Shown here: positions 7,869 to 31,299 of the stretch, in pieces
Numbering within the stretch: the first letter of the stretch is position 1
Layout of the letters: every line of letters starts with the position of its first letter
Source: Pyrinomonadaceae bacterium
GTDB taxonomy: Bacteria > Acidobacteriota > Blastocatellia > Pyrinomonadales > Pyrinomonadaceae
Assembly (NCBI GenBank): GCA_014380365.1
Contig: JACMJZ010000014.1
Coordinates: forward strand, 1 to 54,419
DNA length: 54,419 nucleotides
Reading direction: 5' to 3'
Made by a program: the position numbers and the translations under genes
Notes under the pieces: model-generated
What the model was told of the DNA's origin: nothing
What the model saw: the letters and a program-made list of their open reading frames with translations, nothing else
Databases searched by the model: none

Positions 7869-10800
7869 ATGTACTTCAGCAAGCTTGTCAAAAACAGTCT
7901 GGCCCTCTTAGCCATCGCCTTCATCCTGTCAGAGCCGACGTTTCAGGGCCGCCCCCGCTCTGTGCTCCTTACTGCCTTTGCTGAATCAAGCGGCACAGAA
8001 CAAGGTACTGATGGTATTCATCTGCCGGCGCCGGGAGAATCAACTACGCAAGAACTCTCCGCTGGCGAATTCCATTCGTACCGAATAACACTCGAGACAA
8101 ATCAATACCTCCACGCACTTGTCGAGCAACATGGCATGGAAGCGGGCGTGACGCTCTACGAACCGAGTGGCCGAATCCTGGTTCAACTCGATTGCCGCCA
8201 TTACGGGCCGACACCCGTTTCACTCATCGCAGAAACGACTGGAACATACCGGATGGAAGTGCGGTCGCTTGAAAGAGAGCACGTGCGCGGGCGTTACGAA
8301 TTGAAGGCCGAAGAAATCAGACCTTCTACGGAGAAAGACAAGTATCGGATTGCAGCCGAGAAATCTTTTGCCGAGGCGGAGCAACTGCTCGAAGAGTCGA
8401 AAGCGGAATCAATCCGCAGGGCGGTGGATAAGTTCAAAGCCTCGCTGCCCGCCTGGAAGGCTGCCGGTGATCGTCGGGAAGAAGCTCTTTCACTCAAGCG
8501 CATCGGTGAGAGCTATCAGCCTTTAGGTGAGTATCAAAGCTCGCTGACCTTTTACAATCAGTCGCTCTCTATTAGTCGACAGATAAGGGATCGCAAGAGT
8601 GAAGGCGAAATACTTAACGATCTCAGCATCATTTACCTTACGTTGGGAGATGTCCCCAGAGCCACTTACCTCTGCTCACAGGCCCTGAAGTTAAGCCGGG
8701 CCACAGGTAATCTTCACGGTGAGGCTCAGGCCCTAAACAACTTTGGAGAAGTTCACTACGGACTGGGCGAGTTGCAGCAGTCCGTTGACCTGTATCAGCA
8801 AGCGTTACCGCTCTGGCGCAAGTTGGGCGATCGGAGAGGTCAGGCTCTGACACTTTTGAACTTTGGCTACTCCTACTCGGACATGGGCAAGATGAGTGAA
8901 GCTTTCAACGCTTATGCTCAAGCCCTGCTTTTCTGGCGAACCATAAACAACCTTCGGGGCCAGGCCGCAACGCTTACCGCGATCGGGCGTTTGTATTCCC
9001 GCATGGGAGAAAGTCAGGAGGCACTCGGCTTTTTTGATCAAGCGATGCGGATCGCCCAAGCCGTCGGAGACCCGATTGAGCAAGCCAGAATTCTCAATGG
9101 CATTGCTTACATCTACGACCAGTTAGGTGAAAAGCAAAAGGCAATTGGCTATTACAACCAGGCACTCTCTCTCTTTCGCGCCGCCAGATATTCCAATGGA
9201 GAAGCAAGCACGCTTCACGACATCGGTCGGGCGTACTATTCCCTCGGAGATAATCAGCAAGCCCTTGACTACTATCAGCAGGCTCTCAGCATCTCCAGAG
9301 CCGCCGGCGACCGTCGCCTGGAGTTCACTGAGTTAAGAGATATTGGCAAGGTCTATGATTCTCTGGGCGACAAAGCAAAGGCGCTCGACGCTTACCTTAG
9401 GGCGCTTTCTTTCTGGCGATCGGAACGAGATCTCCGCGCAGAAGTCGATACACTCAACCCCATAGGACTCATCTTTGAAGCACGAGGACAGAAACAGAAG
9501 GCGCTCGAATACTACGAAAAGGCGCTGCCGCTCAGCCGCACAGCAAAGTACCGTTATGGAGAGACCGCGACGCTCCTGGCTATCGCGCGGGTGGAGCGTG
9601 ACAGCGGCCACTTGATGAAAGCTCGCGACCGCGCGGAGGAGGCACTCGTAGTCGTCGAATCGCTCCGGGAGAAGGTTGACAGTCAGGACCTGCGCGCGTC
9701 GTACTTCGCATCGGTGCGGCAACCGTATGAGTTTTATATTGACCTGCTCATGAGGCTGCATGTCGAGCGCCCTTCCGAAGGGTTTGATGCCGCCGCGTTT
9801 GAGGCGAGCGAGCGAGCCCGGGCGCGTTCGCTGCTCGAGACGCTGTCTGTTGCGCGCGTTGGCGTCCGGCGCAGGGCTGAGCCGGCTCTATTGGAGCGGG
9901 AGAGTAAGCTGAGTAAAGAACTGAACGATAAAGCCGCGCGACGGATGAATCTTGCCCCCGCCAGCAAACAGGACGACCCTGAGGCGCTGATGCTCGCCAA
10001 AGAGATCGACGACCTCGCGTGGCAACTTCGTGAGGTAGAGGCCCAGATCAGGGCAGGCAGTATGGAGCAAACCGCGTCGCTTGAGACGCGGCCCCTGGGA
10101 TTGAAGGCGATTCAGGACCGCGTAGTCAGTGATGAAACGCTCCTCCTGGAGTATTCACTCGGAGAGGAGCGGAGCTTTCTATGGGCTATCACCAGAGAAA
10201 CGATTTTCGCTTACGAGCTGCCGCGACGGGCAGAGATCGAAGAATTGGCTCGCGGTGTCTATGACTCGCTCACCGCAAATCAACTTCTGCCGGGAGAACC
10301 ATTCGTGGAACAGCAAGCCAGGGTGGCCATGGCTAACGAACAACTACCATCACAGATCGGAAACCTCAGCAAGATTCTGCTCGCTCCGGTGGCGGACAAA
10401 CTCCGAACAAAGCGCTTGCTGATCGTGGCTGATGGCGCGTTGCAGTACATACCGTTTCAGGTTCTGACCAAACCGACCACACCTAACCTGGCCAACAACG
10501 GCGAAAAAGCAGCAGAGCCCAGACCACTGGTAGCAGACCACGAAATCGTCAATCAGTCCTCGGCTTCCGCGTTGGCAGTTCTGATGGGGGACACCAGCAG
10601 ACGAAAGCAACCTTCGAACTCCGTAGCTGTCTTCGCGGACCCTGTATTCGAAGCAGACGATCCACGCATTACTTCTGGTAGCGTCACGACAACTGATGTC
10701 CTCCAACCGCCGCCCAGTGGAACAGAGTCTGATCGGGCTCTCAGAGACGTCGGCTTAATCGGAAACGGGACCAGAATTCCGCGCCTGCGCGCTTCACAAG

Positions 10801-11471
10801 ACGAAGCGGACGCTATCATGACCGCGGCGCCCTGGTGGTCAGGATTCAAAGCTATTGGTTTTCAGGCTAGTCGAGCGACCGCACTGAGGTCAGATCTTGG
10901 CGATTACCGCATCATCCACTTCGCCACTCATGGTTTTCTCAACGATGAGCACCCGGAATTGTCCGGCGTTGTCCTCTCGTTGTTTGACGAAAAAGGGCAA
11001 TCGCAAGAAGGATTTCTACGCTTGCATGATATTTACAACTTAAATCTGCCGGTTGACCTGGTGGTCCTGAGCGCATGTAACACTGGGCTTGGAAAAGAAG
11101 TTAAGGGAGAGGGATTGATCGGACTGACCCGCGGCTTTATGTATGCTGGCGCGTCTAGTGTGGTCGCGAGTCTGTGGAAGGTCGACGATGAGGCGACCGC
11201 AGAATTGATGCGACTCTTCTATGGCTTCATGTTGCGAGATGGTCTGTCACCCGCGGCCGCGCTCAGAAAGGCCCAAGTGACTATGTCCCAGCAGAAGCGT
11301 CGACAGTCGCCATATTTCTGGGCCGGCTTTGTAATTCAAGGACAGTATCTTCAATCTGAAAGGTCCAGTCGTTTGCCAATCCCTGGTCTCGCCCTTTGGG
11401 CAGTGGCGGCAGCCGTCCTAAGTGCTGCGGGAATCTACGCCTTGAGGCGACGACGAAAGACCGCTCTTTAG
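7869..11471 (+). CDS. TPR-CHAT protease with N-terminal PPC-like domain
   Basis: A 1200-residue protein. Residues 8-25 are hydrophobic (signal or anchor); residues about 45-150 look like a PPC-type beta domain (THE FHSYRITLE and YRMEVRSLE strands fit this fold). Roughly residues 155-640 are ten or more TPR/TPR_12 repeats with the GDRRGEA and YYQQALSISR pattern. The CHAT (caspase-like, clan CD) domain covers about 850-1155, with His1021 in HFATHGF and Cys1070 in LSACNTG, so the dyad is intact. A C-terminal hydrophobic helix lies near 1176-1195. The CHAT domain is thus probably tethered to the membrane; which side is unclear. It is followed after 70 nt by an ECF sigma factor gene and a membrane anti-sigma-like gene, a plausible transcription unit. 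No Cas protein is adjacent, so this is not the type III-E CRISPR TPR-CHAT. Confidence 0.9.
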   Translation: MYFSKLVKNSLALLAIAFILSEPTFQGRPRSVLLTAFAESSGTEQGTDGIHLPAPGESTTQELSAGEFHSYRITLETNQYLHALVEQHGMEAGVTLYEPSGRILVQLDCRHYGPTPVSLIAETTGTYRMEVRSLEREHVRGRYELKAEEIRPSTEKDKYRIAAEKSFAEAEQLLEESKAESIRRAVDKFKASLPAWKAAGDRREEALSLKRIGESYQPLGEYQSSLTFYNQSLSISRQIRDRKSEGEILNDLSIIYLTLGDVPRATYLCSQALKLSRATGNLHGEAQALNNFGEVHYGLGELQQSVDLYQQALPLWRKLGDRRGQALTLLNFGYSYSDMGKMSEAFNAYAQALLFWRTINNLRGQAATLTAIGRLYSRMGESQEALGFFDQAMRIAQAVGDPIEQARILNGIAYIYDQLGEKQKAIGYYNQALSLFRAARYSNGEASTLHDIGRAYYSLGDNQQALDYYQQALSISRAAGDRRLEFTELRDIGKVYDSLGDKAKALDAYLRALSFWRSERDLRAEVDTLNPIGLIFEARGQKQKALEYYEKALPLSRTAKYRYGETATLLAIARVERDSGHLMKARDRAEEALVVVESLREKVDSQDLRASYFASVRQPYEFYIDLLMRLHVERPSEGFDAAAFEASERARARSLLETLSVARVGVRRRAEPALLERESKLSKELNDKAARRMNLAPASKQDDPEALMLAKEIDDLAWQLREVEAQIRAGSMEQTASLETRPLGLKAIQDRVVSDETLLLEYSLGEERSFLWAITRETIFAYELPRRAEIEELARGVYDSLTANQLLPGEPFVEQQARVAMANEQLPSQIGNLSKILLAPVADKLRTKRLLIVADGALQYIPFQVLTKPTTPNLANNGEKAAEPRPLVADHEIVNQSSASALAVLMGDTSRRKQPSNSVAVFADPVFEADDPRITSGSVTTTDVLQPPPSGTESDRALRDVGLIGNGTRIPRLRASQDEADAIMTAAPWWSGFKAIGFQASRATALRSDLGDYRIIHFATHGFLNDEHPELSGVVLSLFDEKGQSQEGFLRLHDIYNLNLPVDLVVLSACNTGLGKEVKGEGLIGLTRGFMYAGASSVVASLWKVDDEATAELMRLFYGFMLRDGLSPAAALRKAQVTMSQQKRRQSPYFWAGFVIQGQYLQSERSSRLPIPGLALWAVAAAVLSAAGIYALRRRRKTAL

Positions 11472-11541
11472 ACTACAATGCGCCGAGAGGCCACCGGGCC
11501 GAGCCACAAATTTCACCTGCGTCCGACTCTTACTGGCTTGA

Positions 11542-12096
11542 ATGAAGAAAGACTGGATCCTAACTCAGGAATCTTTTGATGCCCTGCTCGTCTGGCTTGA
11601 TCCCGCGCGTGAAGAAGCCGGACGAAAATACGAGGAGATCCGGGTTCGTCTCATCAAGATTTTCACCTGCCGTAAGTGTTCTGAAGCGGAAGACCTCGCC
11701 GACGAAACAATTAACCGGGTCAGCAAAAAGTTAAAGGAAATCGAGAGCACTTACTCAGGTGCCCGCGCGCCCTATTTTTATGGAGTGGCCAACAAGGTGT
11801 ACATGGAGTATTTGAGAAGGAAGAAGGTGCCTGCGCCACCCGCGCCCGCCGATCAGTCAGACGCTATTGAGAAAGAATATGCCTGCCTCGAAAAATGTAT
11901 TGAAGACTTAACGCCTGACAATCGAGAACTGGTGCTCCAGTATTATCAGGGTGAGAAAACGGCCAAGATAGTTCATCGCAAACAGCTAGCCGAACAGCTG
12001 GGTATCGCTGTGAACGCCCTGAGAATACGCGCTCATCGCATTCGCACCTCGCTTCAGGATTGTGTGGAAGGTTGCCTTCAGGAAGCGACTGCATGA
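11542..12096 (+). CDS. ECF-type RNA polymerase sigma factor
   Basis: A 184-residue sigma70-family protein. Residues about 25-95 fit region 2 (SEAEDLADETINRVSKKL, then PYFYGVANKVYMEYLRRKK), and residues 120-175 fit region 4 (LTPDNRELVLQYYQ, then LAEQLGIAVNALRIRAHRI). It would direct RNA polymerase to a specific promoter set. It lies 70 nt after the TPR-CHAT gene and 60 nt before a membrane protein likely to be its anti-sigma partner, so all three may be cotranscribed and functionally coupled. No strong Shine-Dalgarno precedes the ATG. The pair of cysteines CRKC near residue 49 is unusual and could be redox or metal responsive, which is speculation. Confidence 0.85.
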   Translation: MKKDWILTQESFDALLVWLDPAREEAGRKYEEIRVRLIKIFTCRKCSEAEDLADETINRVSKKLKEIESTYSGARAPYFYGVANKVYMEYLRRKKVPAPPAPADQSDAIEKEYACLEKCIEDLTPDNRELVLQYYQGEKTAKIVHRKQLAEQLGIAVNALRIRAHRIRTSLQDCVEGCLQEATA

Positions 12097-12156
12097 AATG
12101 GCCTGGGCTAAATAAGCATTGAATATGGAGAGCCTTGACGGGGGAAGGGGCTGGCA

Positions 12157-13086
12157 TTGAAGTTAGACGCTAAAGAACTGGCATTAATAAGGAAATATCT
12201 TCTGGGGCGGTCGCCGCAGGAGGAATGCACTAACATCGAACAACGGCTGTTGGCCGATTCTGACTATTTTCAGGAGATTTTAATTGGAGAAGAAGAGCTA
12301 ACTGACGAGTACGTTGCCGAACAACTTTCTGAATCTGACAGACAAGCTTTTGAGACAAACTTCCTGGTGACCGTTGAGCGGCAGAGACGAGTGAGTTTTG
12401 CACGTCGCTGGAGTAAGTACATCGGCGAAGCGACAAAAACGGCGGTGGAGGAAGAGATTGTCACTCAACCTTCTGAACTGTCAGCCGATTCAGACGACTC
12501 CGTCGTTTCCCCAGTTTCCACGGTTTCCACAGTTTTCCCCGTTTTCCCGGTTTCCCCACAGAGGCGACGCTTCTTTTCGTTTTTCCCTGCGCAAACCCCG
12601 ATTCTCTCTTACTCCCTGGCGGCTGCCGTCCTGCTGGGGGTTGTCAGCCTTTCCTGGGTAGTAGTCAGGAATTGGAGAAGTCCACAGACTGGGGGAAGTG
12701 CTTTGGCTGTGACCCTGACCCCGGGACTTACGAGGGACGGCGGCGAGATTACAAGAATCAGGCTATCGCCAGGACTGGACAGTGTTGACCTCCGGCTTAC
12801 TCTTCCGAAATCTGACTATCGAGAGAAATCTGACTATCGAGTTTATAGAAGTGTCTTACTGGCTGATGACAGGTCACAAATGTGGTCCAGCGGAGACCTG
12901 ATAGCGGTCAATGAAGCGGAAAGTCTCGGTAGCCAGAGCGACAACGGCTCTGGAACAACTTTCGTCGTTTCAAGGGTTCCGGCCAGACTGCTTGCGCCCG
13001 GCGACTATCGCGTCGCAGTCAGTGGCCGCTCAAGCAACAGCGCGTTTGAAGACATCGCCACCTACTCCTTCCGCGTAGTGCGATAG
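12157..13086 (+). CDS. Membrane anti-sigma-like partner protein
   Basis: A 309-residue protein starting at a TTG preceded by a GGGGAAGGGG stretch. Residues 1-85 form an acidic helical domain (SPQEECTNIEQRLLADSDYF, then EEELTDEYVAEQLSESDR) of a kind I associate with sigma-factor neighbours in Acidobacteriota; it lacks the zinc-binding His/Cys motif of classical ZAS anti-sigma factors. A Pro/Val/Ser linker (about 115-135) leads to a single transmembrane helix near residues 150-170 and an extracytoplasmic beta-rich domain ending FRVVR. The likely role is holding the sigma factor at the membrane, an inference from position and topology. The linker is encoded by DNA micro-repeats (12508-12561). 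Confidence 0.7.
   Translation: MKLDAKELALIRKYLLGRSPQEECTNIEQRLLADSDYFQEILIGEEELTDEYVAEQLSESDRQAFETNFLVTVERQRRVSFARRWSKYIGEATKTAVEEEIVTQPSELSADSDDSVVSPVSTVSTVFPVFPVSPQRRRFFSFFPAQTPILSYSLAAAVLLGVVSLSWVVVRNWRSPQTGGSALAVTLTPGLTRDGGEITRIRLSPGLDSVDLRLTLPKSDYREKSDYRVYRSVLLADDRSQMWSSGDLIAVNEAESLGSQSDNGSGTTFVVSRVPARLLAPGDYRVAVSGRSSNSAFEDIATYSFRVVR
12508..12561 (+). repeat. Degenerate 9-nt tandem repeats in the anti-sigma-like gene
   Basis: About six diverged copies of a 9-nt word of the type GTTTCCCCA / GTTTCCACG run in frame and encode a Val-Ser/Phe-Pro linker just before the transmembrane helix. It is a likely site of length variation between strains. Confidence 0.7.
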
Positions 13087-13151
13087 ATCTCTCCTCCGCT
13101 CATTCCTCGTTCCATTTCCTGGTGTCCCCCACGTATTCGCACGCAGACTCA

Positions 13152-13253
13152 CGCCACGCGCATCAAACTCGTTATCAAAGAACTGTCCTTCGTCTCTACC
13201 AACTACTTCAGTAGCGCCTTCAATTTTGGGCCAGCACTACCGCGCTCTCGCGA
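13152..13253 (-). pseudogene. Fragment of a thymidine kinase gene
   Basis: Positions 13152-13212 align with 24553-24612 inside the intact tdk of this window with only four differences (three substitutions and a one-base indel); weaker matching continues to 13253. On the minus strand the fragment reads [15 protein letters not shown], the Walker B segment of thymidine kinase, with Ile changed to Arg, and then goes out of frame. No other part of tdk is found nearby. This is a partial duplication or the relic of a second tdk, not a gene. Confidence 0.85.
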
Positions 13254-13409
13254 AGCGTGCTCTGTAACTTCCCGAATTGATGACGTTGGTAGAACCCAGT
13301 TGCTGAGTCTTATTGCGCGGTGAACGCTGGAGCTCTTAGCGACGGTGCCGGTCGTAGTTCGTTAACCATGAATAGCCACGCCAAGGGTAGTGTCACGGTT
13401 TGAATTAAA

Positions 13410-13513
13410 CTCTGTGCGTCCTCTGTGTTCTCTATGTCTCTGTGGTGACTCCTTTTTGGCGATTGCTCACCACCGAGACACGGGGAAACGGAGGTTCACA
13501 GAGGAAACTGAAA
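13410..13513. repeat. Dispersed long inverted repeat, CTCTGTG family, copy 1
   Basis: One arm carries words such as CTCTGTGTTCTC and GTCTCTGTGG, the other CACCGAGACACGG and GTTCACAGAG, as imperfect reverse complements around a centre near 13455. A second element with the same words lies at 42133-42235. No coding function is seen. Confidence 0.7.
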
Positions 13514-13663
13514 GTGGGACACTAGCCACGCCAAGTCCGATCTTGAAATAGCCCGGCTTACAAGAGACAATGGCGGCGCTCAGCTTCGTTAGGCTTATCT
13601 TTTCCACGAGTTTCTCGCTAACCGTTCTCAGTTCAGTTCTTAAGTTGAGGTAGCCTCGCCCAT

Positions 13664-16600
13664 ATGATTGGCCAAACTTTCTCGCACTACCGAATTATTA
13701 AGGAACTCGGCAAAGGTGGCATGGGCGTTGTCTACCTCGCGGAGGACACGGTGCTGGGCCGGCAAGTCGCCGTCAAGACACTAACCGAAGCAGGTGGCCC
13801 GGGCCGGCAACATTTTCGCACCCGTTTCCTGCGCGAAGCGCGCGCAGTATCCGCCCTTTCTCATCCGCATATCGCCACCATTCACGACTACGGCGAAACT
13901 CCCGACGGGCAACCATACATAGTGATGGAGCTAGTCAAGGGCGAAACGCTCGCCGAACTGTTGAGCAAGAACACGTTGACGATTGCCCGCGCAATCGAGA
14001 TCATCAAGCAAGTCGCCGAAGCACTCTCCGAAGCACACCGGCATGGCATAGTGCATCGCGACATCAAACCTTCGAACATCGCTATAAATGAGCGTGGTCA
14101 AGTCAAAGTCCTGGACTTCGGACTTGCGAAAGAGATTACTGCTGCACAAGCCGCTGAGGGAGATCCCGAGGCACACGCGCTTCTCAATACGCAAACCCGC
14201 GAAGGTGTGATCGTGGGCACGCCGACGTATCTATCGCCCGAGCAAGCGCTGGGAGTGGACGTCGACTCGCGCAGCGATCTGTTCTCACTCGGCGGCGTGC
14301 TGTACGAGTGCATCGCGGGTAAACCACCATTCTTTGGCGGCAACCCGATCGAGATTTGCGCGCGAGTAATCCGCGACGATCCTCCTCCGCCATCGCAACT
14401 AAACGCGGACGTTAGCAGTGAACTGGATCGCATTACACTGAAAGCCCTGGCCAAGAAGCAGGAGGAACGTTACCAAACAGCGGACGAATTGATCGCTGAC
14501 TTAGATCTGTTGCAGACAGAAATGCATGGTCAAGGCTCGGGCCACACAGTCACCCGCCTGATTGCTCCATCCGCCGTAACACAACCCGCCAGCGCGCTCG
14601 CCACCCTATCAGACATCTTCAAGCGCCCTCGTGTATCAGTGGGTTATGCTTTGGCTGTGGCGCTCTTGATAAGCGTGGGCATTCTTGGTTATTGGCTTCT
14701 GACGCGTTCCCGGCCCCATACGCCCAATGCGGGGGCGCAACGCTGGTTTGACTTAGGCGTCACGGCTCTGCGCGAGGGTGCTCATCATAAGGCAAGCAAA
14801 CTATTTGAAGAGGCTATCAAAGAGGATGATCAATTTGCCCTGGCTCATGCAAGGTTGGCCGAAGCCTGGTCCGAATTGGACTATACAGATAAGGCCAAGG
14901 ATGAACTCATTCGGGCTGCCGACCTTGTGCCGGATCGTTCAATCCTGCCTCAGGTGGATGGTTTTCGGCTCCAGGCTGTAACGGATACGGTGAGGCGAGA
15001 CTTTGCCAAAGCTATCGAGAGCTATCGCAGTATCGTCTCGGACCTTAGCGAACCGGAAAGGCCGCACGCCTATGTAGATCTAGGGCGCGCCTATGAAAAG
15101 AATGAAGACTTAGTAAAGGCAATTGAGAGTTACTTGGAGGCTACAAAGCGCAACCCCCATTATGCTGCGGCATTCCTTCGACTGGGCATCGTTTATGGCC
15201 GTCATCAGGATATTCCAAAAGCAGAGCTGGCATTTGATGAAGCGCTAAGACTTTATCAACTGTCGACTGATCTCGAGGGAACTACGGAGGCTCTCTTTCA
15301 AAGAGGTTCACTTCTCAATAGCCTCGATAAGTTTTCGGAGGCCCACAATCAGTTGAGACGTGCGCTTGAGATTGCGGCTAGTACCAAAAACAAACCCCAG
15401 CAAATCAAAACGCAGCTACAGCTGAGCAGCGTCGCCTATAGTGAGGGAGATGCCGTGCATGCTGAACAGTTAGCAAACACGGCCTTAGAAATGGCCCGAG
15501 CTGAAGGGCTCGATAACCTCACAACCAGCGGCTTAATTGATATCGGCAATATTTTTTTATTGCGTGGCAAATACATCGAAGCCGACAGATATTTTAATCA
15601 GGCACTTCGGATCGCCCAGTTGAACAAAGGTCGTCGCGGCGAGGCAAAGGCGCTGCTGTCCCTCGGCAGCCTGCGTCTCCAGGAAGGAAATGCGAGCGCC
15701 GCAGTTGATTCGATCAAGCCAGCGGTCGCCTATTATCAACAGGGCAACTACCGGAAAGAGACGTCCCAGGCTCTTTTATTGTTGGGACGAGCAAGTGAGT
15801 TGCAGGGCAATTACGACGAAGCGTTAAAGGCCTACGCGGAACAACTTCAGGTTGCAGCACAGATTGGCGATCCATCGCAGTTGGCTTATGCGCACGTATA
15901 CCTCGGTTCGTTCTTGGGTTATCAGGAACGGTATACAGAGGCGCTAGAACATTTTCGCCAGAGTTATAACATTAATAAAGGGTTGGGCGCTCACCCACGT
16001 TTGGGCTACGACTCCATGAATCAGGGAAATATGCTTTGGCAGGTTGGGCAATACAAAGAGGCTCGCGAGACACTCAACCAAGCGTCCTCTCTGGCAAAAC
16101 AACCCGGTGGAGATAATCAACAGCTTATGGCTTGGATTCTTTTGTTCGAGGCTCGTATGGCTTTGAGTGAGCTTCATCCCCAGAAGGCGGCTTTGTTGGC
16201 CAGGCAGTCTCTGGCTCTGGCAGGCACTGAGTACAAAGACATCCTCATTCAGGCAAAGTCCACCTTAGGATTAGCGCAAGCTCTCTCTGGCATGTTACGT
16301 GCAGGGTTAGGTTCGTGTCAGGAGGCGGTTGATCTAGCGACAGAAATCCGCGACCCACGATTAATCTCAAGCGGCCAATTGGCGCTATCGAGGGTGCTCC
16401 TGGAAAACGGAGACTCTCAGAATGCCTTGAAAATTTCACTCGCGGCCCAGGACTCTTTCTCTCGTAATGCCCTGCGTCATTCCGAATGGCAGGCGTGGAC
16501 CATCGCCGCGCTGGCAGGTGATCAACTAGGAGATCGAACAAAGGCGCATGAATATGCAAGCCGAGCTGAGAATGGACTTGGGAAACTTCGGGAGGACTGG

Positions 16601-16687
16601 GGCGAGGAAATCTTCAACGCCTATGTTCAGAGATCCGACGTCCAGTATTACCGCAAGCGAATAGGTGGAGTCTTAGCAAACCCTTAA
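13664..16687 (+). CDS. Transmembrane Ser/Thr protein kinase with C-terminal TPR domain
   Basis: A 1007-residue Hanks-type kinase. Residues 9-285 are the kinase domain with glycine loop GKGGMG (16-21), Lys38 in VAVK, the HRD motif at 131-133, Asn138, DFG at 151-153 and SPEQ near 191; all catalytic residues are intact. One transmembrane helix spans about 326-347. The remainder (about 360-990) is TPR repeats, so the sensory part is presumably outside the membrane. It would phosphorylate Ser/Thr on cytoplasmic proteins; the FHA-domain proteins at 22.3 and 42.4 kb are conceivable readers. A 98-residue protein gene follows after 27 nt, likely in the same transcript, which ends at a strong terminator at 17041. 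Confidence 0.93.
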   Translation: MIGQTFSHYRIIKELGKGGMGVVYLAEDTVLGRQVAVKTLTEAGGPGRQHFRTRFLREARAVSALSHPHIATIHDYGETPDGQPYIVMELVKGETLAELLSKNTLTIARAIEIIKQVAEALSEAHRHGIVHRDIKPSNIAINERGQVKVLDFGLAKEITAAQAAEGDPEAHALLNTQTREGVIVGTPTYLSPEQALGVDVDSRSDLFSLGGVLYECIAGKPPFFGGNPIEICARVIRDDPPPPSQLNADVSSELDRITLKALAKKQEERYQTADELIADLDLLQTEMHGQGSGHTVTRLIAPSAVTQPASALATLSDIFKRPRVSVGYALAVALLISVGILGYWLLTRSRPHTPNAGAQRWFDLGVTALREGAHHKASKLFEEAIKEDDQFALAHARLAEAWSELDYTDKAKDELIRAADLVPDRSILPQVDGFRLQAVTDTVRRDFAKAIESYRSIVSDLSEPERPHAYVDLGRAYEKNEDLVKAIESYLEATKRNPHYAAAFLRLGIVYGRHQDIPKAELAFDEALRLYQLSTDLEGTTEALFQRGSLLNSLDKFSEAHNQLRRALEIAASTKNKPQQIKTQLQLSSVAYSEGDAVHAEQLANTALEMARAEGLDNLTTSGLIDIGNIFLLRGKYIEADRYFNQALRIAQLNKGRRGEAKALLSLGSLRLQEGNASAAVDSIKPAVAYYQQGNYRKETSQALLLLGRASELQGNYDEALKAYAEQLQVAAQIGDPSQLAYAHVYLGSFLGYQERYTEALEHFRQSYNINKGLGAHPRLGYDSMNQGNMLWQVGQYKEARETLNQASSLAKQPGGDNQQLMAWILLFEARMALSELHPQKAALLARQSLALAGTEYKDILIQAKSTLGLAQALSGMLRAGLGSCQEAVDLATEIRDPRLISSGQLALSRVLLENGDSQNALKISLAAQDSFSRNALRHSEWQAWTIAALAGDQLGDRTKAHEYASRAENGLGKLREDWGEEIFNAYVQRSDVQYYRKRIGGVLANP

Positions 16688-16714
16688 TGCACTATCACAG
16701 GAAAAGGAGACGAA

Positions 16715-17011
16715 ATGGATCAGAAATCGGAAAAAGAAGAAGAGTTTGGCTTTGAGCGCGAAGGGCGCAAAGGAACACTAGAGGTCCCACCCGTCGTTAT
16801 CAAAGGTGGTTCCATAGAGGTTGAGTTTCCCATCGAGCCCTTCGATGCCCCCGAGCACGGTAAGAAGGTCAAGTTGGTCAAACACCCAAAGAACACCGAA
16901 ATTACTATCATAGAAGTCAGGGATCCTCAGAAGAACGTGATTAACACCTATAGGCTGCCCGCTAACTTGAAAGGCAAATGTTACATCTGCATCTGGGATA
17001 ACAGTCCATAG
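16715..17011 (+). CDS. Small acidic/basic mixed protein, function unknown
   Basis: A 98-residue soluble protein with a strong AAAAGGAGA site 7 nt before the ATG, so translation is likely to be high. The first 20 residues are highly charged; the rest has alternating hydrophobic residues suggesting a small beta-sandwich (IEVEFPIEP, KVKLVKH, TEITIIEVRD). No signal peptide or membrane helix. It follows the kinase gene by 27 nt and precedes a strong terminator, and is convergent with the subtilisin gene. Being a kinase substrate or protease partner is only a guess. I do not recognise the family. Confidence 0.75.
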   Translation: MDQKSEKEEEFGFEREGRKGTLEVPPVVIKGGSIEVEFPIEPFDAPEHGKKVKLVKHPKNTEITIIEVRDPQKNVINTYRLPANLKGKCYICIWDNSP

Positions 17012-17040
17012 CGCTTGTAGGGGAAGGCGATTGAGCTTTG

Positions 17041-17070
17041 GCGCGGCTGGTGACACCAGCCGCGCTTTTT
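17041..17070 (+). terminator. Strong intrinsic terminator after the kinase operon
   Basis: Perfect 11-bp GC-rich stem (GCGCGGCTGGT at 17041-17051, ACCAGCCGCGC at 17055-17065), 3-nt loop and five Ts. It ends transcription of the kinase and 98-residue protein genes and separates them from the convergent subtilisin gene. Confidence 0.92.
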
Positions 17071-17119
17071 CTTCAGACGGGGAACCGTTTGGATTTCAGA
17101 AGCAAGTAAGAGATATCTG

Positions 17120-18523
17120 TCAGGGAGCCTTGACGAGGCCGGCACCAACGTCTTGAGGGAGAAAGGGCAGCGGCCGGGCATTTTTAGTTATCAACGACCA
17201 AAGATCCCTTCCGAGTACGCCTGGGTTGGCTTCAGCATAGAGAGCCGCAATGCCGGCCACGTGAGATACGGCCATACTGGTTCCGTATTTCAAGGAATAT
17301 CTCTTGGGCATCAAATAACTGGAGTATATGTCAGCACCCGGGGCAGCAATGTCTATTCCTCTACTAGTCGAGTCTACGCCCCCATTGGAGAACCCAGCGA
17401 TCTTGAGTTCAGAATCGACTGCGCCGACCGCCATGGTCGAGTAGCAACCAGCCGGTTCGTATATGGGAGACACACGAATTGGGCGAAGGCTGTCATTGCC
17501 GGCTGCCGCCATTACCAGCGTCCCCAATTTTAAGGCGCGACGGGTAATATTTTCATAGGCTACGCTGTATGGCGCATCAGGATCCTTCTCCCATCCCAGT
17601 GCCATCGAGATAACGTGACACCCTTTGTTAATGGCCCATTCCATGCCGGCTATGATCCATCCGTCTTCTCCCTCACCGTGGTTGTCAAGAACCTTTCCCA
17701 CAAAAATGTCAGCGCCGTAGGCAATTCCATACCTCGGCGTGATCGAAGGTTTGAGCGGCCCACAAGCCGTGCCCGTGCAGTGCGTTCCATGTCCGTTGTC
17801 GTCTTTAGCTGTCTTTGCACCTGGTACGAAAGAAGCGATTACTATAGTTCGGTCCACGAAATCGGGGTGGTAGATGATCTTTCCTCCAGCACCTACCTCT
17901 AGGTCCAGACCTGTATCCAAAATTGCCACCCGAACGCCACGGCCACTGAAAGTTGTATGGACTACTTCTGTTGCTTGAAGTCCCCAGGTAACTTGCGATT
18001 CGTCAAAAACCATACTGTCGAACGTCTCTGGCACAGGCGACAGAAACTCACGATCACAGAAAGTGCTTTTCAAGCGAGGCTTTTGACTCTCCAAGGCGCG
18101 CCGGATCTTCTCCGGTTCGACCGCCAAGATCGGACTATCTAACTCCGCAGCTGCCTGCACCAACCGGCTTATCTGTTCAGGCGAACCGGCAACAATCGCA
18201 ACACTCAGCGTCTTGAAAAAAATAGCGCCTTGGCTGACTGCTTCATCTTCTCTTACTTGATCATTTGTTGACGCAGACGACACCATAGTCTCAAGGCCGA
18301 ACGATTCGAGTCTCTCCAAGCCTTCCTTAACTGCGTCTTGACGGAAGACCACTATGTATCTACCCGTGGTCTTTGATTGGGTAGCTTTAGAATTCGCTTC
18401 GTCTGAGTTATGGCCCGACGAACGCATGGTATTTTCAGGTTTTGGCCGCTTCATTCCATTCTTCAGTGGGGTATCTGGTGAAAACCGTGCCTTAAAGTCT
18501 TGGCCTGTGTACGGAAATGTCAC
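17120..18523 (-). CDS. Subtilisin-like serine protease (S8), no signal peptide
   Basis: A 467-residue S8 peptidase. Residues about 54-145 look like an inhibitor-type propeptide (RYIVVFRQ start). The catalytic triad is intact: Asp203 in AILDTGLD, His245 in DNGHGTH, Ser416 in GTSMA, with the oxyanion Asn343 in AAAGND. The GTG at 18523 gives a polar N-terminus without signal peptide; a later ATG (18454, MKRPKPE) is a reasonable alternative start. A cytosolic location is therefore likely, though leaderless export cannot be excluded. It is convergent with the kinase operon and is the fourth protease-related gene in this stretch. Substrate unknown. Confidence 0.92.
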   Translation of the reverse strand: MTFPYTGQDFKARFSPDTPLKNGMKRPKPENTMRSSGHNSDEANSKATQSKTTGRYIVVFRQDAVKEGLERLESFGLETMVSSASTNDQVREDEAVSQGAIFFKTLSVAIVAGSPEQISRLVQAAAELDSPILAVEPEKIRRALESQKPRLKSTFCDREFLSPVPETFDSMVFDESQVTWGLQATEVVHTTFSGRGVRVAILDTGLDLEVGAGGKIIYHPDFVDRTIVIASFVPGAKTAKDDNGHGTHCTGTACGPLKPSITPRYGIAYGADIFVGKVLDNHGEGEDGWIIAGMEWAINKGCHVISMALGWEKDPDAPYSVAYENITRRALKLGTLVMAAAGNDSLRPIRVSPIYEPAGCYSTMAVGAVDSELKIAGFSNGGVDSTSRGIDIAAPGADIYSSYLMPKRYSLKYGTSMAVSHVAGIAALYAEANPGVLGRDLWSLITKNARPLPFLPQDVGAGLVKAP

Positions 18524-18741
18524 TCCGCCGTAAAGCTTCCTGTGGTGAGCCCAGCCCGTGGAATGATGCCGACTACTGAGTTTTATTAAACCACTCGAAA
18601 AAGTCGGCGCGAATCAGAGTGGGGCGCCAAGCTTATCGAGGCTCTAGCACGAGAGAAACTGACTGACGAACGGCAAGGTAAGCAGTATTCGTTTCAGAGC
18701 GAGCAAGATCTTGGCAGCCGCACGGTAAGTGTGCGGTAGGG

Positions 18742-19008
18742 CTAGACCAGCCAGAGCATAAATTCAGCTACCTCGATTACCAGAGCGCTCATCTCATCAG
18801 CTGCCGTCGGCCGGCCATCGGTCGTTGTCGATTGAATGCTTTCCGATCCAGATAGGCCGGCTTCACAATCAACCGGGGCTGGCGAGGCGTACCCACCACC
18901 ACCTATTGTAATCGGACTCGACTGGGCAAAGGCGCTCAATGGCACGCACATGAGCGCGAGCGAAACTAGCGATGTTCCCACAGCCCGTGGAAGGTATCTC
19001 TTAATCAT
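18742..19008 (-). CDS. Small secreted protein, function unknown
   Basis: An 88-residue protein with an AAGGAG site 7-8 nt before the ATG. Residues 1-29 are a clear signal peptide (KR near the start, hydrophobic core LVSLALMCVPL, cleavage after AFA). The mature part is only about 59 residues, with a Gly/Ser-rich start, a single cysteine and an acidic-hydrophobic C-terminus (VIEVAEFMLWLV) that could insert in a membrane or serve as a recognition tail. It lies downstream of the metallopeptidase gene on the same strand with a 147-nt gap. I do not recognise the family. Confidence 0.7.
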   Translation of the reverse strand: MIKRYLPRAVGTSLVSLALMCVPLSAFAQSSPITIGGGGYASPAPVDCEAGLSGSESIQSTTTDGRPTAADEMSALVIEVAEFMLWLV

Positions 19009-19155
19009 CTCAGTTGCTCCTTCGAATTTCGGTTATCGAATTGCAAACGGCACCCTTTTACGCCAGACCATAATATAAATCAAGCTATTTTCGAGTTTAT
19101 TCTTCGGCCGCCTTTCAGCTTTAAGTCGACATTTCCGCTGCATGGTTCAACGAGT

Positions 19156-19785
19156 CTATGGCGTATTGCTGTAGCCCGCCCGCATCAAATCGGCGCGAAT
19201 CCTGCCGGGCGCATGGGTTTGATCACCAGCGGACGGCGTTACCCAATCGATGAACTTTTGCATCTGAGCCGGACTGAACTGCCGGCTAGCCTTCAACAAC
19301 GTGCCGGCAAAATAATCAGCCTGGCCTTCAGCGCCGTACTGCATGGCAAATTGATCGACTGGTATTAAGCGATAGGCTTGTGAGACATGGCCGAGTTCGT
19401 GGGCATAAATACCGATCGTTATGTCTTCGTCCAGTTCTGCAAACCATTGGGGATTTACCGCAATTCCGAACGCGCCCGCGCGCGCATTTTTCTCTCCGTC
19501 GAGCACTAAGATCGGGAAGCGCATGGTTTGCAGTACGGGATTCCTGGCGATGGCCCAGGGGCTAAACCAGTCGAACAGTTGTTGCTGTCGCGGGCTGACG
19601 GGAGCAGGCTGGGGCAAAATCTGGTATCCCGCTCCCGGCATCGCCGCAGAGTAAGAACAGGAAGGGAGTTGAAACTGTACGTTATTCGACGCCGCAGCAC
19701 GCGCGGATTCTGTGACGCTTGGGGTAATTGGATTCGGCTGAATGCCCAGAAAGGTAAGAAGTAGTAAGAAGAGAACTCTTTCCAT
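19156..19785 (-). CDS. Small exported zinc metallopeptidase-like protein (HELGH)
   Basis: A 209-residue protein when started at the ATG at 19785, which has an ideal AAGGAG nine nucleotides upstream; an in-frame start 11 codons earlier is less likely. Residues 1-18 are a hydrophobic signal peptide. The core holds a gluzincin-type zinc motif HELGH within IYAHELGHVSQAY, followed about 25 residues later by EGQADYFAG, which resembles the third-ligand Glu and Asp motif of M48-like enzymes. The family is not certain. It would act in the periplasm or outside. Same-strand neighbours on both sides are small proteins with equally strong ribosome sites, possible substrates. Confidence 0.8.
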   Translation of the reverse strand: MERVLFLLLLTFLGIQPNPITPSVTESARAAASNNVQFQLPSCSYSAAMPGAGYQILPQPAPVSPRQQQLFDWFSPWAIARNPVLQTMRFPILVLDGEKNARAGAFGIAVNPQWFAELDEDITIGIYAHELGHVSQAYRLIPVDQFAMQYGAEGQADYFAGTLLKASRQFSPAQMQKFIDWVTPSAGDQTHAPGRIRADLMRAGYSNTP

Positions 19786-19828
19786 TGGAATCTGCTCCTT
19801 TCTCCTAGTTGGGATCACTATTGTAAGA

Positions 19829-19887
19829 GGGCGGCGGCTCTATACCCTGGAATCTTCGAATAGAAGTTCCCCGAGAGCCCGCCGCCG
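19829..19887 (-). terminator. Hairpin downstream of the 91-residue protein gene
   Basis: Arms GGCGGCGGCTCT (19829-19841) and AGAGCCCGCCGCC (19874-19886) pair with one bulge. On the minus strand the structure begins about 12 nt after the stop and a short CTCTT follows. It may end or attenuate the transcript before the metallopeptidase gene. The T-tract is poor. Confidence 0.45.
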
Positions 19888-19897
19888 AACCTACTAG

Positions 19898-20173
19898 TTA
19901 GACTGGACAGGCCATGTCAGCCAGGCCCATGAGGAATTCAATTGCATCGGCCGCCTTGTCCCCGATCTTTGGGATCTTCCTGATAACTTTAACCAGGATT
20001 CTGAGCCAGCCCTTGATTGCGTGATACTTCTCGCACAGATCCCCTGCATCAATCGAAGAGAAGGAAGCCACGTTGGCTCCTCCCTTACCCCGAGCACTTA
20101 GACCTTTCAACTCAGCATCAATGCGGTCGACAGCGTCTAGTTCTTCTTTACTGAAATTCAATTCCTGACTCAT
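19898..20173 (-). CDS. Small protein with basic amphipathic middle, function unknown
   Basis: A 91-residue protein with AAAGGAG 6 nt before the ATG, so the start is solid. Residues 1-35 are acidic and helical with a Gly-rich end (ARGKGGANV). Residues 50-70 form a basic amphipathic helix (IKGWLRILVKVIRKIPKIG), and the end is hydrophobic with a penultimate-region Cys (MACPV). No signal peptide. The leader-like acidic N-terminus with a Gly-rich junction and cationic C-terminal part resembles a peptide precursor or toxin, but no maturation or export gene is recognised beside it, so this stays speculative. Confidence 0.65.
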   Translation of the reverse strand: MSQELNFSKEELDAVDRIDAELKGLSARGKGGANVASFSSIDAGDLCEKYHAIKGWLRILVKVIRKIPKIGDKAADAIEFLMGLADMACPV

Positions 20174-20357
20174 CTTTTTCTCCTTTGTGAGACTGTGAAG
20201 TTCGCACAGACTCTTAATCTGTTGCTTTCTTGTTTGGCCAGCAACTGCACCCAGCCTCGTTTAGCGGAGTTGCTACTTTCGATTCATGACAACCAGTGCT
20301 GTATATGAAAAAAGGGAAGGAAGCCGGTTGTAAGCGTTCCTACCCCTCCGACTAGAT

Positions 20358-22091
20358 TCAGGGCGACGGGGTTGGCGAAGGTGAAGCTATGGGCGTAGCG
20401 ACAAAATTCGCTGACTTATCCGCACAGGTCCATGAATGCTCTGCCGGCGTGAACGTATGGTCGTCGAGTGATGGAATAATTTTGAAGGGCGCCGCGTGCG
20501 ATCGCGTCACTTCGAATTGGTATTCGCCCTTGTCATTTGTTGTAGCCGTCTTCTTGTTTCCATCAATTTCGGTTAGTTCCAATGTTACGTCTTTCAGCGG
20601 AACGCCACCTTTGGTGACTGTTCCTCTGATGAGATGATCGGCGGAAAAATTCAAATTCGCTTTGGTGTCGTTCAAGAAAAATGCCGGGCTGATCGAAGGC
20701 GAGAAGCTGAGGGCTTGTAATTCTGGTTCAACTGTATAGGTGCGACCGTCAGGCACGTTCGGAAACTTATAACTACCATCCGCGTCGGTCGTACTTGTTC
20801 GATCAGAAAAGTCGCCACCCCCGCTCAACGTTAATGTCACACCTGCGACGCCGACATTGCAGGCGTCAGTGATTCTGCCCGAGATGGAATGATCTGTTAG
20901 CGATGTTCCAAAGGGCGTACTCACCACTCTCACGCGGTTCACATGCTCGATTTGGTGGCCAACTATCACGAGATCTCCCAAGGCGCGCATGACATCTTGA
21001 TCATTTTTTGGATCGAAGTGTCGGTCGTTTGGATTTGCCAACGGATTACATGTTTTCTTGTCCGGACAAATGAGCCTTTTGGGAACGAAGGTAACAATTC
21101 GCGCTTGTACGTTATTGGGAATAATCGTTTTGGTTGAGACGTCATCGCGGTAGGTTTGGTCCGCTAGACGATCCAAGCGAGTAGGCAGCAAATCCGGCCA
21201 CGCATCCTCAAGACCCTTTTCAAACGGATTAATGAGATTGATTACAGTGGAAAAGTTCGCCTTCCGATTTACTGCATGAAAAAACGGCAAGAATGCCGAA
21301 AGGGCCGCGGGGAGGCTTTTGAGTATTGCGATCGTAGTTTTTCGCGGGCTGTATTCCCCATACCCCTCCAAGCTCCCGCGCACGGTGCGATACCCTGAGC
21401 TTGGAATTCGATAGTTGCCACCGAGCGCTGGAAGCGTGAAACCGATCCCTGACAGCTGCAAGTCGTAACCGGAGTCGTTACCAATCACTACTTCGATTTC
21501 ATAAAAGTGCTTGGAAACGGAACTACCAAAATTGTGTCTGACGATTTTGTCTGGCACGACGGCCCAAAACACATCTACCTGACCTTTATTATTAAGACCG
21601 GGAGGAATCGGCTGCGGCGTGACGCCCGTAACCGAGAAGTCGATTAGAGTCTTGCTCCCAGATGGGTTTGACGAATTAGAAAGCCACAACTTCACGATGC
21701 CTAACGGAGCATCGGGCGCAATCTTCAATTTGGCGGTCACCTGGCATTGCCTTTGATTTAGCTCTGTAACCGTGATTCCGCTTCCTGCCGGTGCGTGAAG
21801 ATTGAGTTTAGCCGTGGCGCCGGCGACTTCAACGCAGCCATCCTGGCTGACTATGACCTCGTACTCCCTGCCCTGGGTTCCACTGGACGGCGCTATCGAA
21901 TAAATGGGAGGAGCAGGCGAGGGCGTTGCAAAAGCTGTAGGCGTCTCAACAGGCGTAATTGGAGATGGAAATGAAGCTTTATTTCTCGTTCTTGAAGTCT
22001 CGACGGCAGCCGAGAGAGGTGTAGTCAGCAGAGTAATTGTCAGGATGAGCGCAATCTTCTGGTAAACCGGATGAAAGGATTTGGAAGGCAT
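20358..22091 (-). CDS. Large exported protein with IPT-like and carboxypeptidase-regulatory-like domains
   Basis: A 577-residue protein when started at the ATG at 22091, which follows a good AAGGAGA site; an upstream in-frame start adds 27 unlikely residues. Residues 1-30 form a signal peptide ending near LSAAVE. Then comes a Pro/Thr-rich stretch, an IPT/TIG-like beta domain (IYSIAPSSGTQG), a middle part of unknown fold (about 170-410), and two Cna-B or carboxypeptidase-regulatory-like domains (ISGRITDACNVGVAGV and IRGTVTKGGVPLKDV). It ends in a Pro/Ser/Thr tail without a sorting motif. It is probably a cell-surface or secreted structural protein. It heads the minus-strand series 22.1-18.7 kb. 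Confidence 0.75.
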   Translation of the reverse strand: MPSKSFHPVYQKIALILTITLLTTPLSAAVETSRTRNKASFPSPITPVETPTAFATPSPAPPIYSIAPSSGTQGREYEVIVSQDGCVEVAGATAKLNLHAPAGSGITVTELNQRQCQVTAKLKIAPDAPLGIVKLWLSNSSNPSGSKTLIDFSVTGVTPQPIPPGLNNKGQVDVFWAVVPDKIVRHNFGSSVSKHFYEIEVVIGNDSGYDLQLSGIGFTLPALGGNYRIPSSGYRTVRGSLEGYGEYSPRKTTIAILKSLPAALSAFLPFFHAVNRKANFSTVINLINPFEKGLEDAWPDLLPTRLDRLADQTYRDDVSTKTIIPNNVQARIVTFVPKRLICPDKKTCNPLANPNDRHFDPKNDQDVMRALGDLVIVGHQIEHVNRVRVVSTPFGTSLTDHSISGRITDACNVGVAGVTLTLSGGGDFSDRTSTTDADGSYKFPNVPDGRTYTVEPELQALSFSPSISPAFFLNDTKANLNFSADHLIRGTVTKGGVPLKDVTLELTEIDGNKKTATTNDKGEYQFEVTRSHAAPFKIIPSLDDHTFTPAEHSWTCADKSANFVATPIASPSPTPSP

Positions 22092-22277
22092 CTTATTCTC
22101 CTTGAAGCGGTGAAGCTCAACTACTGTTCGATAACAACTGCGAGGTACCACATAGCTAATACCGTGCCGCACGATTCATCGCACCTGGTTCTTCTCTTCT
22201 AGCTAGTTGTCTCTCTTGAAGGGACGATCTGCGCGAGTAATTATCGGAGGGCCTGACCAATTGAATCTTCCCGACTG

Positions 22278-22301
22278 TCAATATTGATAGTTCGACTATC
22301 A
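22278..22301. promoter_or_regulatory. Overlapping palindromes upstream of the sigma54 activator gene
   Basis: A perfect 10-bp palindrome TCAATATTGA (22278-22287) overlaps an inverted repeat TGATAG-5 nt-CTATCA (22285-22301). They lie 23-46 nt before the ATG and are AT-rich in a GC-rich context, so an operator is plausible. Confidence 0.4.
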
Positions 22302-22323
22302 CTTCTGATATGCTTCCAAGCGC

Positions 22324-24255
22324 ATGGAGCCCCACCTCATCGCCATCTCGGGATCGCTAAAGGGAACGACCTTCCCTTTGGCGAAGGACGAGATCTCTGT
22401 CGGCCGCGAAGCTTCAAACGAAATCTATCTAAACGACCCGTCCATTTCGCGACGGCATTGCCTGATTAGACGAACGTCAGTGTTCGACGCGGAAGAAGTA
22501 AATCAACTCACTATTCGCGATCTCGAAAGCTACAACGGCACGTTTGTGAATGGGGTGCCTGTCCTTGAGCAGTCGCTCGCGCACGGTGATCAGATTGCTT
22601 TGGGCGATGTTCTCTTTCTTTTCCTCGCCCACGAGGGCGGAGAAGAAGATGCTCCGGCGATCCAAATGGACGAGGTTGGTTTGATTACACGGTCCACAAT
22701 CCGACTCAAGCGCGAGGAGGCGTTCTACCTTCGTCCTGAAAGAGTGCTGGCGGCACTCCGATCTGACGATCGCGTTGCGCGCGAGCTGAACACGCTTCTC
22801 AAAATCAGCAATACGATCAATTCGATCCGCGATATGCGGGAACTACAACAGCGGCTGTTGGAGTTGATTCTGGAAGTGGTTCCAGCTGAACGTGGCGCCA
22901 CTCTTCTGCTCGATGAAACTCGGGAGGAGTTTGTTTCGATCTGTGGCTGGAGCCGCCTTCGCGGCGCCGACGATTCCATCAAGGTAAGCAAAACCATCAC
23001 GAATCAGGTGCTGCGCGAAGTCGTGGCGCTGCTGAGTAACGATATCTTTGAAAGCGAAAACATTGGCGGGACGCCCAGTCTGGTGGCGGCGCGCGTTTGC
23101 TCGCTGCTGTGTGTACCTCTAATACTTTTCGATAAGCCATTGGGTGTGATCTATCTCGATACCAGCGATCCCACAGCGCGTTTCGATGAGGGCCATCTCC
23201 AGTTGTTAACTGCTATTGCCGGAATTGCCTCCGTCGCCTTCGATAACGCGGAACGGTTTCAGGGATTGCAGATTGAAAACCAGCGACTGCAGGAGGAGGT
23301 TCAACTCGAGCACAAGATGATTGGCGAGAGCGCGCCGATGCGTGAGATTTACCGCTTCCTTGCCAAGGTGGCGGCGACCCAATCAACCGTTTTGCTGCGA
23401 GGTGAAAGCGGAACTGGAAAGGAGCTAGCCGCCCATGCGATTCACTTGAATAGCTCGCGCGCGTCGAAACCCTTTGTTGCAATCAACTGCGCGACTTTGA
23501 CCGAAACGCTACTCGAGAGCGAGCTGTTTGGACATGAGAAAGGCGCCTTCACAGGAGCAATTGCGCAGAGACGGGGCAAGCTTGAAGTCGCAGATGGTGG
23601 GACAGTCTTTCTCGATGAGGTGGGTGAACTAACGCCGATGATTCAGGCCAAGCTGCTGCGGGTGCTGCAGGAGCGTGAGTTTGAAAGAGTAGGGAGTACG
23701 CGGCCTATCAAGGTTGACGTTCGCATCATCGCGGCTACCAACAAAGATCTGGAAGCGGCGATTAAAAGCGGAGGCTTTCGCCAGGATCTCTACTACCGTC
23801 TAAATGTGGTTTCTATCGCGATGCCGCCACTCAGAGAACGTCGCGAGGATATCTCGCTCCTGGCAAGCTTCTTCACGGTTAAGTATAGCAACCAGTGTAA
23901 GCGCAGGGTCAGCGGGATCTCCCCTGAAGCACGCAATGCTTTGCGATCCTATGATTGGCCCGGAAACGTTCGCGAGTTGGAGAATGCAATAGAGCGGGCA
24001 GTTGTCCTCGGATCAAGTGATTCGATAAGGCTGGACGATCTGCCAGAGAGCTTGCTTGAATCCGGGCAGGCCGGAAGTCTGAAGAGTGGATATTATGAAA
24101 CCCTGAGGGAGACGAAGAAACAGCTTATAACGAAGATGCTCGAACAAACCGGCGGCAATTACACCGAGGCCGCAAAGTTGTTAGGAGTACACCCAAACAA
24201 TCTTCACCGACTGATTCGGAGCCTAAATCTCAAGACAAGCCTCAAGAAAACTTAG
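22324..24255 (+). CDS. FHA-GAF-AAA+ sigma54-dependent transcription activator
   Basis: A 643-residue protein. Residues 3-100 are an FHA domain ([21 protein letters not shown]), which binds phosphothreonine. Residues about 155-305 are a GAF-like sensor. Residues 335-575 are an AAA+ domain with Walker A GESGTGKE (about 358), the sigma54-contact loop GAFTGA (about 408) and Walker B VFLDEVGE. Residues 600-640 carry a Fis-type HTH ([19 protein letters not shown]). It therefore activates sigma54 promoters, likely under control of a Ser/Thr kinase rather than a two-component receiver. The kinase at 13.7 kb is a possible partner. Its targets are unknown. Confidence 0.95.
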
Positions 24256-24274: not shown

Positions 24275-24898
24275 TCATTCCGGATGCACCGTGGGGGCGT
24301 CGGCGTGGGGGACGAAGCAGCGACGGCAGCGGGCTTCGTACATGTCGCCGCCACCCACTGCTACACGTTCTTCGGATTCAACGGTGCGTTGCGTATAGTT
24401 CGCCGGTTGGCCACACTTCATGCAGATGGCGTGGGTCTTGGTGATGTATTCAGCGATTGCGAGCAGCTGCGGCATTGGTTCCCAGGGTTTGCCGGTATAG
24501 TCCTGATCCAAGCCCGCGATGATTACCCGAACTCCGCGTTGGGCCAACTCATTCGCCACGCGCACCAACTCGTTATCAAAGAACTGTCCTTCGTCTATAC
24601 CAACGACTTCAGTATCAGCCTCGACTTTCGCCAGCACTTCAGCCGCACTCCGAATGTTGGCCGACTCGTGACGCATTTCCGAATGCGAGACAATGTGATC
24701 CTGTGAAAAACGCGTGTCAATCTCCGGTTTAAATACCTGCACCTTTTGCCGCGCTATTTTGGCACGCCGCAGCCGGCGAATCAGCTCTTCTGATTTTCCC
24801 GAGAACATCGACCCAGCTATTACTTCAACCCACCCCGTGGTCGCGCGTGGATGATGACTCGGTTCGCTGTCGTTAGTCTGTGCAATTAATTCGTCCAT
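24275..24898 (-). CDS. tdk: Thymidine kinase
   Basis: A 207-residue type II thymidine kinase that phosphorylates thymidine to dTMP in nucleotide salvage. Seen: P-loop [11 protein letters not shown] near residue 30, Walker B and catalytic region GIDEGQFF near 98-105, the lasso and zinc-site cysteines CMKC and CRRC in the C-terminal third. Length is normal. The stop is convergent with the sigma54 activator, 20 nt away. The yjjX-like gene lies 27 nt upstream on the same strand, so the two nucleotide-metabolism genes probably form an operon. A fragment nearly identical to its Walker B region lies at 13152. Confidence 0.95.
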
Positions 24899-31193: not shown

Positions 31194-31299
31194 TATTCAT
31201 ATGAGTTCTTGGGGTCGTCTTGTCAGAACCGCCTGCGGTACCGGGCGGGCCCGAATGGGGGGGACAATAATAAAACTGCCTCGCCTAAATCGCGACTGC

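What the first reader, a model, noticed from the sequence alone, without database searches (positions are those of the whole stretch)
13152..13253. A thymidine-kinase fragment 11 kb from the intact tdk
61 positions align to the Walker B coding part of tdk with four differences including a frame-breaking indel, and weaker similarity extends about 40 more. The fragment lies in an intergenic region that also carries a dispersed palindrome. Such near-identity suggests a recent local duplication or gene-conversion-like event, or repair with copied DNA.
Basis: seen in the sequence. Interest (0 to 1): 0.55.

Follow-up and report, generated by a model that had tools for sequence, protein, structure and literature searches.

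The report
Decayed thymidine-kinase scrap at rearrangement scar
A 108-base dead copy of part of the bacterium's own thymidine kinase gene lies where a roughly 10.7-kb gene block probably moved in beside that gene; it is an ordinary gene remnant that happens to mark a local rearrangement.

Summary
Window 13147-13254 matches tdk at 24547-24654, same strand, 92/111 identical, E 3e-23; 0 of 1000 dinucleotide shuffles reach its score. The sequence on either side is not tdk beyond chance. The scrap groups with this genome's own tdk rather than those of relatives. It is frameshifted and its own changes fall at codon positions 1-2, so it is decaying.

The context is new. The scrap and the intact tdk bracket a block (kinase, subtilase, FHA/sigma-54 activator; about 13538-24255). 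In relative G004 that block lies on another contig, bracketed by a tRNA-Val and a 60-bp copy of it. In the 8 of 15 genus relatives whose tdk neighbourhood I read, the block is not beside tdk. The scrap lies between older neighbours of tdk (CHAT/sigma/anti-sigma genes) and the block. Best reading: the remnant of a tdk copy made when the block came in, or shortly before. One relative, G001, has its own tdk pseudogene on the same side of tdk. Gene conversion is not supported; a regulatory role is unlikely but not excluded. Interest is low.

The parts
13147..13254 (-). tdk' : decayed copy of tdk coding bases 245-352 (about codons 82-117, Walker B region), frameshifted
   Evidence: BLASTN 92/111, E 3e-23; shuffles 0 of 1000; profile hit; tree
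24275..24898 (-). intact tdk, thymidine kinase, 207 aa; source of the copy
   Evidence: translation; Pfam TK E 1e-54; 14 of 16 genus genomes have a match
13373..13535 (.). dispersed palindrome (core 13389-13525) between identical 13-bp direct repeats TAGCCACGCCAAG (13373-13385, 13523-13535); probably a later, separate insertion
13538..24255 (.). block between tdk' and tdk: kinase/TPR gene 13664-16687 (+), subtilase 17120-18523 (-), other ORFs, FHA/GAF/sigma-54 activator 22324-24255 (+); same order and strands in G004 on another contig
   Evidence: Pfam; homology with G004 C31 starts at 13538 and runs to codon 638 of 643 of the activator
7869..13086 (+). CHAT-TPR protein 7869-11471, sigma-factor-like 11542-12096, anti-sigma-like 12157-13086: relatives lie near tdk in G004 and G015, so probably an older neighbour of tdk
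   Evidence: anti-sigma role inferred from position; no Pfam match

Best explanation
The fragment is the last recognisable piece of a second copy of this organism's own tdk. The copy arose within this lineage, lost its reading frame and both ends, and is decaying without function. It sits at the left edge of a block (kinase - subtilase - FHA/sigma-54 activator) that now separates tdk from its probable older neighbours (CHAT/sigma/anti-sigma genes). The copy was most likely made when that block was inserted at the 3' side of tdk, or by a tandem duplication just before; the palindrome came later, between the scrap and the block. Shown: the copy, its closeness to own tdk, its loss of frame, the block's different location in G004. 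Inferred: the order of events, and that insertion and duplication were one event.
For: Match E 3e-23 and 0 of 1000 shuffles. Local alignment score to own tdk 121, best relative 66; sister to own tdk with support 95 and 100. Of 10 substitutions in the alignment, the 5 where tdk agrees with G004, G012 and G006 (changes in the scrap) are all at codon positions 1 or 2; the other 5 are all at position 3. Between the intact tdk of G000 and G004, 22 of 24 differences are at position 3. Block: G004 C31 has kinase, subtilase and activator in the same order and strands, homologous from window 13538 to near the activator's end, while its tdk is on C19; G013 and G005 have kinase and activator together on contigs other than their tdk contigs. 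In 8 of 15 genus relatives I read the tdk neighbourhood and the block is not beside tdk (the other 7 were not read). Older neighbours: sigma/anti-sigma homologues 1.6-3 kb from tdk in G015 and 7-8 kb in G004, on tdk's 3' side. Parallel case: G001 has a tdk pseudogene 2.3 kb 3' of its tdk, same strand, with an internal deletion and frameshift, 91% and 86% identical to its own tdk in its two parts.
Against: No relative with the duplicate intact was found, so the order of events is inferred. No recognisable tdk 3' end or flank accompanies the scrap, so a simple target duplication reaching the tdk stop is not seen directly. G013 and G005 modules are not bracketed by a gene copy as far as their contigs show (one 38-nt 87% pair in G013, none in G005). 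At one of 5 informative sites the scrap agrees with the relatives and not with own tdk. The interior of the block differs between G000 and G004, so it is not one conserved insert.
Confidence: 0.75

Rival explanations
1. Independent events: a small tandem or ectopic duplication of tdk DNA decayed in place, and the block was inserted between the copies later, with no mechanistic link.
For: G001 has a tdk pseudogene next to tdk without this block, so duplications at this side of tdk happen without it.
Against: The scrap lies within 300 bp of the left limit of the block's homology with G004 (13254 vs 13538), which is unlikely for unrelated events but not impossible.
Confidence: 0.2
2. Integrase-type insertion: an island integrated into tdk near codon 80, rebuilt tdk from its own copy of the 3' part, and left the original 3' part at the far end, as islands do at tRNA genes.
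For: Geometry like G004's block, bracketed by tRNA-Val 173886-173960 and an exact 60-bp copy 162322-162381, 11,564 bp apart; in the window the copies are 11,400 bp apart. In G007 the same tRNA has G004's left flank (about 100 bp beyond the tRNA) on one side and its right flank on the other, like an empty site.
Against: No integrase among the Pfam-scanned ORFs of the block in G000 (8 ORFs) or in 4 of the G004 ORFs. The scrap shares lineage-specific states with the current tdk at 3 of 5 sites, so the 3' part is not visibly foreign. The duplicated stretch would be about 380 bp, long for an attachment site (recalled).
Confidence: 0.1
3. Gene conversion or repair patched a 61-bp tract of tdk into an unrelated or older sequence.
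For: The 3' coding half of the scrap has 2 of 52 mismatches against 8 of 52 in the other half.
Against: The difference is not significant (p 0.09), and homology continues through 13214-13254 at lower identity, as decay alone would give.
Confidence: 0.04
4. Functional antisense: readthrough from the sigma/anti-sigma operon (plus strand) would make an RNA complementary to tdk mRNA over up to 61 bases.
For: Strand orientation and a perfect stretch of about 27 bases.
Against: Not found in any of 38 other genomes; no Rfam family on the scrap; promoter-like sites do not lie on it and no terminator-like site was found; changes look neutral.
Confidence: 0.03

Closest known systems
Bacterial gene remnant / unitary fragment pseudogene (the class that tools such as Pseudofinder report; PMC9336565, seen as search listing with start of abstract only)
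   Same: Truncated, frameshifted, decaying copy of a gene that is intact elsewhere in the genome
   Different: Very short (108 bp), and placed at the edge of a moved block
Duplicated sequence left at rearrangement breakpoints (discussed for mitochondrial genomes in PMC5569537, seen as search listing with start of abstract only)
   Same: A partial duplicate adjoining a breakpoint
   Different: Bacterial chromosome; the breakpoint is inferred from one close comparison
Genomic island at a tRNA gene with a displaced 3' tRNA copy (recalled; G004 C31 is an instance by shape)
   Same: Gene on one side and a partial direct copy on the other, about 11 kb apart
   Different: Here a protein gene, an internal rather than 3'-terminal piece, 83% identity, no integrase found

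Membership tests
gene remnant (pseudogene fragment) | significant homology to an intact gene | tested here: met
   E 3e-23, 0 of 1000 shuffles
gene remnant (pseudogene fragment) | truncated and out of frame | tested here: met
   108 of 624 bases; single-base indels
gene remnant (pseudogene fragment) | no constraint: changes not concentrated at third positions | tested here: met
   5 of 5 scrap-side changes at positions 1-2; few sites
gene remnant (pseudogene fragment) | not expressed as a product | not testable with these tools
   no RNA or protein data
integrase-type genomic island | flanking direct repeats from the target gene | tested here: inconclusive
   tdk' and tdk are in direct orientation, but tdk' is internal and lacks the 3' end
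integrase-type genomic island | integrase or recombinase gene | tested here: not met
   none among 8 scanned ORFs of the block 13538-24255
integrase-type genomic island | empty site in a relative | tested here: inconclusive
   block not beside tdk in the 8 relatives read, but their left flanks differ from the window and from each other

The most novel reading that the evidence does not exclude
The kinase - (subtilase) - FHA/sigma-54 pair with variable genes between is a mobile unit that inserts at the 3' side of genes and leaves a partial direct copy of the target gene at its far end: tRNA-Val in G004, tdk in this genome, without an integrase of its own.
Probability: 0.08. Interest if true: 0.5.

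Novelty: new member of a known kind. Interest (0 to 1): 0.15.

Why it matters
It is a small dated marker of how gene blocks move in these soil Acidobacteriota: the scrap tells which side of tdk was broken and that it happened after the split from the sampled relatives. If the bracketed block proved mobile, it would be a signalling module that travels without an evident integrase; that is not shown.

Tried and rejected
Chance similarity: rejected. Longer tdk remnant around the scrap: not significant on either side, although an unconstrained alignment can be drawn through both flanks (score 147 vs 139). Scrap inherited from an old duplication shared with G001: rejected, each copy is closest to its own genome's tdk overall, though the 5' part of the G001 remnant is equally close to G009 (86%) and G002 (87%). 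A second tdk in G013: two contig ends, C333 and C262, overlap in tdk with 350 of 357 identical, and C262 carries the ARPP-1 gene next to tdk as G015 does, so I read it as one gene split by strain variation; not proven.

Frequency of such scraps: in 454 kb of this genome (247 intergenic stretches of 60 bases or more, 118 with some match; 107 matches to ORFs at E<1e-6, most in repeat families) I kept only targets in ORFs of 180 aa or more and pieces with at most 3 hits; 15 rows remained and tdk' was the strongest. One other row is longer than 60 bases (C33 190992-191122, 131 bases, 76%); the rest are 24-52 bases. One unfiltered match was stronger (C33 1-289, contig edge) and was dropped by the filter. 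Sources outside these 454 kb were not tested.

tdk copies in the class: 114 of 117 genomes have a protein match, each exactly one; that search does not see tdk' in this genome either, so it says nothing about short scraps. Rfam: two microRNA models on the palindrome far below their gathering scores (25.6 vs 100 and 24.1 vs 96 bits), taken as chance hairpin matches. PADLOC: kinase, subtilase and sigma-54 domain matches only, not a defence system. Literature: listings only; none describes this case; no paper was opened.

Full report
Observation. Window 13147-13254 is 92/111 identical to 24547-24654 inside tdk, same strand, E 3e-23. Shuffling gives no comparable score in 1000 trials, while the flanks score no better than shuffles. 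tdk at 24275-24898 is intact and a Pfam thymidine kinase.

Host. The window is a whole contig of a 4.98-Mb draft genome. This is an inference from lengths.

Origin of the scrap. Its local alignment score is 121 with own tdk and at most 66 with 13 other genus tdk sequences. It is sister to own tdk with support 95 (108 columns) and 100 (with full genes). Of 5 sites where own tdk differs from a state common to G004, G012 and G006, the scrap shares own tdk at 3, the relatives at 1, neither at 1. Ten substitutions separate scrap and tdk in that alignment. In five of them tdk agrees with the three relatives, so the change is in the scrap: all five at codon positions 1 or 2. The remaining five are at position 3. 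Intact tdk genes differ mainly at position 3 (22 of 24 differences between G000 and G004 in this stretch). The scrap is therefore an unconstrained copy made within this lineage.

Other genomes. A DNA search of 39 genomes finds matches to the scrap part only at tdk genes outside this genome. A DNA profile run on the tdk neighbourhoods of 8 relatives finds one further remnant, in G001: two pieces, 30576-30721 and 30722-30869, model positions 54-201 and 470-617, so with an internal deletion, 2.3 kb 3' of its tdk on the same strand. It is 86% and 91% identical to G001's own tdk in the two pieces. The ORF after it (30996-31331) has an HTH_38 domain and looked IS30-like to me by recall; no transposase domain was matched. 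In the class, 114 of 117 genomes have tdk, one match each.

Context. To the right of tdk gene order is conserved in the 8 relatives read; to the left it differs. In G015 and G013 an ARPP-1 domain gene (window 982-2037; Pfam) is next to tdk. Sigma and anti-sigma homologues lie near tdk in G015 and G004, and a CHAT-TPR homologue does in G004. In the window the scrap follows directly on the anti-sigma-like gene, 60 bp after its stop, and the block follows.

The block. Kinase/TPR, subtilase and FHA/GAF/sigma-54 activator occur in the same order and strands in G004 on contig C31, 162687-173797, with homology from window 13538. If the contigs are right, that is at least about 179 kb from its tdk on C19 (contig positions). 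G013 and G005 have kinase and activator together, on contigs other than those with tdk. The genes between differ. In G004 the block lies between an intact tRNA-Val(gac) at 173886-173960 and an exact 60-bp copy at 162322-162381, which ARAGORN also calls as a 72-base tRNA-Val. G007 has this tRNA with G004's two outer flanks on its two sides, like an empty site; the left flank compared is only about 100 bp. In G013 the only bracketing direct repeat seen is 38 bases at 87%, and in G005 there is none. This genome gave no match to the tRNA pattern within 2 mismatches; the assembly is 95% complete.

Palindrome. 13389-13525 is one of about 8 places of a dispersed palindrome in 454 kb. This copy, alone of the 8 examined, lies between identical 13-bp direct repeats, as a later insertion would.

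Mechanism. Most likely a tdk duplicate arose on the 3' side of tdk, together with or shortly before the entry of the block, and then decayed. That insertion and duplication were one event is an inference from the scrap lying at the block's left limit. The parallel with the tRNA-bracketed block of G004 is suggestive, but two of four genomes with the pair do not show it.

Verdict. A real, statistically secure but ordinary gene remnant.

Noticed in passing
L164/L165 (G004 C31), 162322-173960 in contig coordinates: The kinase-subtilase-FHA/sigma-54 block lies between tRNA-Val(gac) and an exact 60-bp copy of it, 11,564 bp apart, without an integrase among the ORFs scanned.
   Followed up: partly
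13373-13535: Dispersed palindrome with identical 13-bp direct repeats at its ends, seen at 1 of 8 copies examined.
   Followed up: partly
L138 (G001 C89), contig 30576-31331: tdk pseudogene with internal deletion and frameshift, followed by an HTH_38-domain ORF that may be a broken transposase.
   Followed up: partly
13195-13210 and 13278-13293: 16-nt inverted pair, 81% complementary, one arm inside the scrap; may be chance.
   Followed up: no
G004 C31 150609-160214 (L164): Run of ORFs that by recall look like contractile tail-sheath/injection genes, left of the tRNA copy; not searched.
   Followed up: no
454 kb of G000 (C22, C30, C33): 118 of 247 intergenic stretches of 60 bases or more match somewhere else in the same 454 kb: a genome rich in dispersed intergenic repeats.
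   Followed up: no
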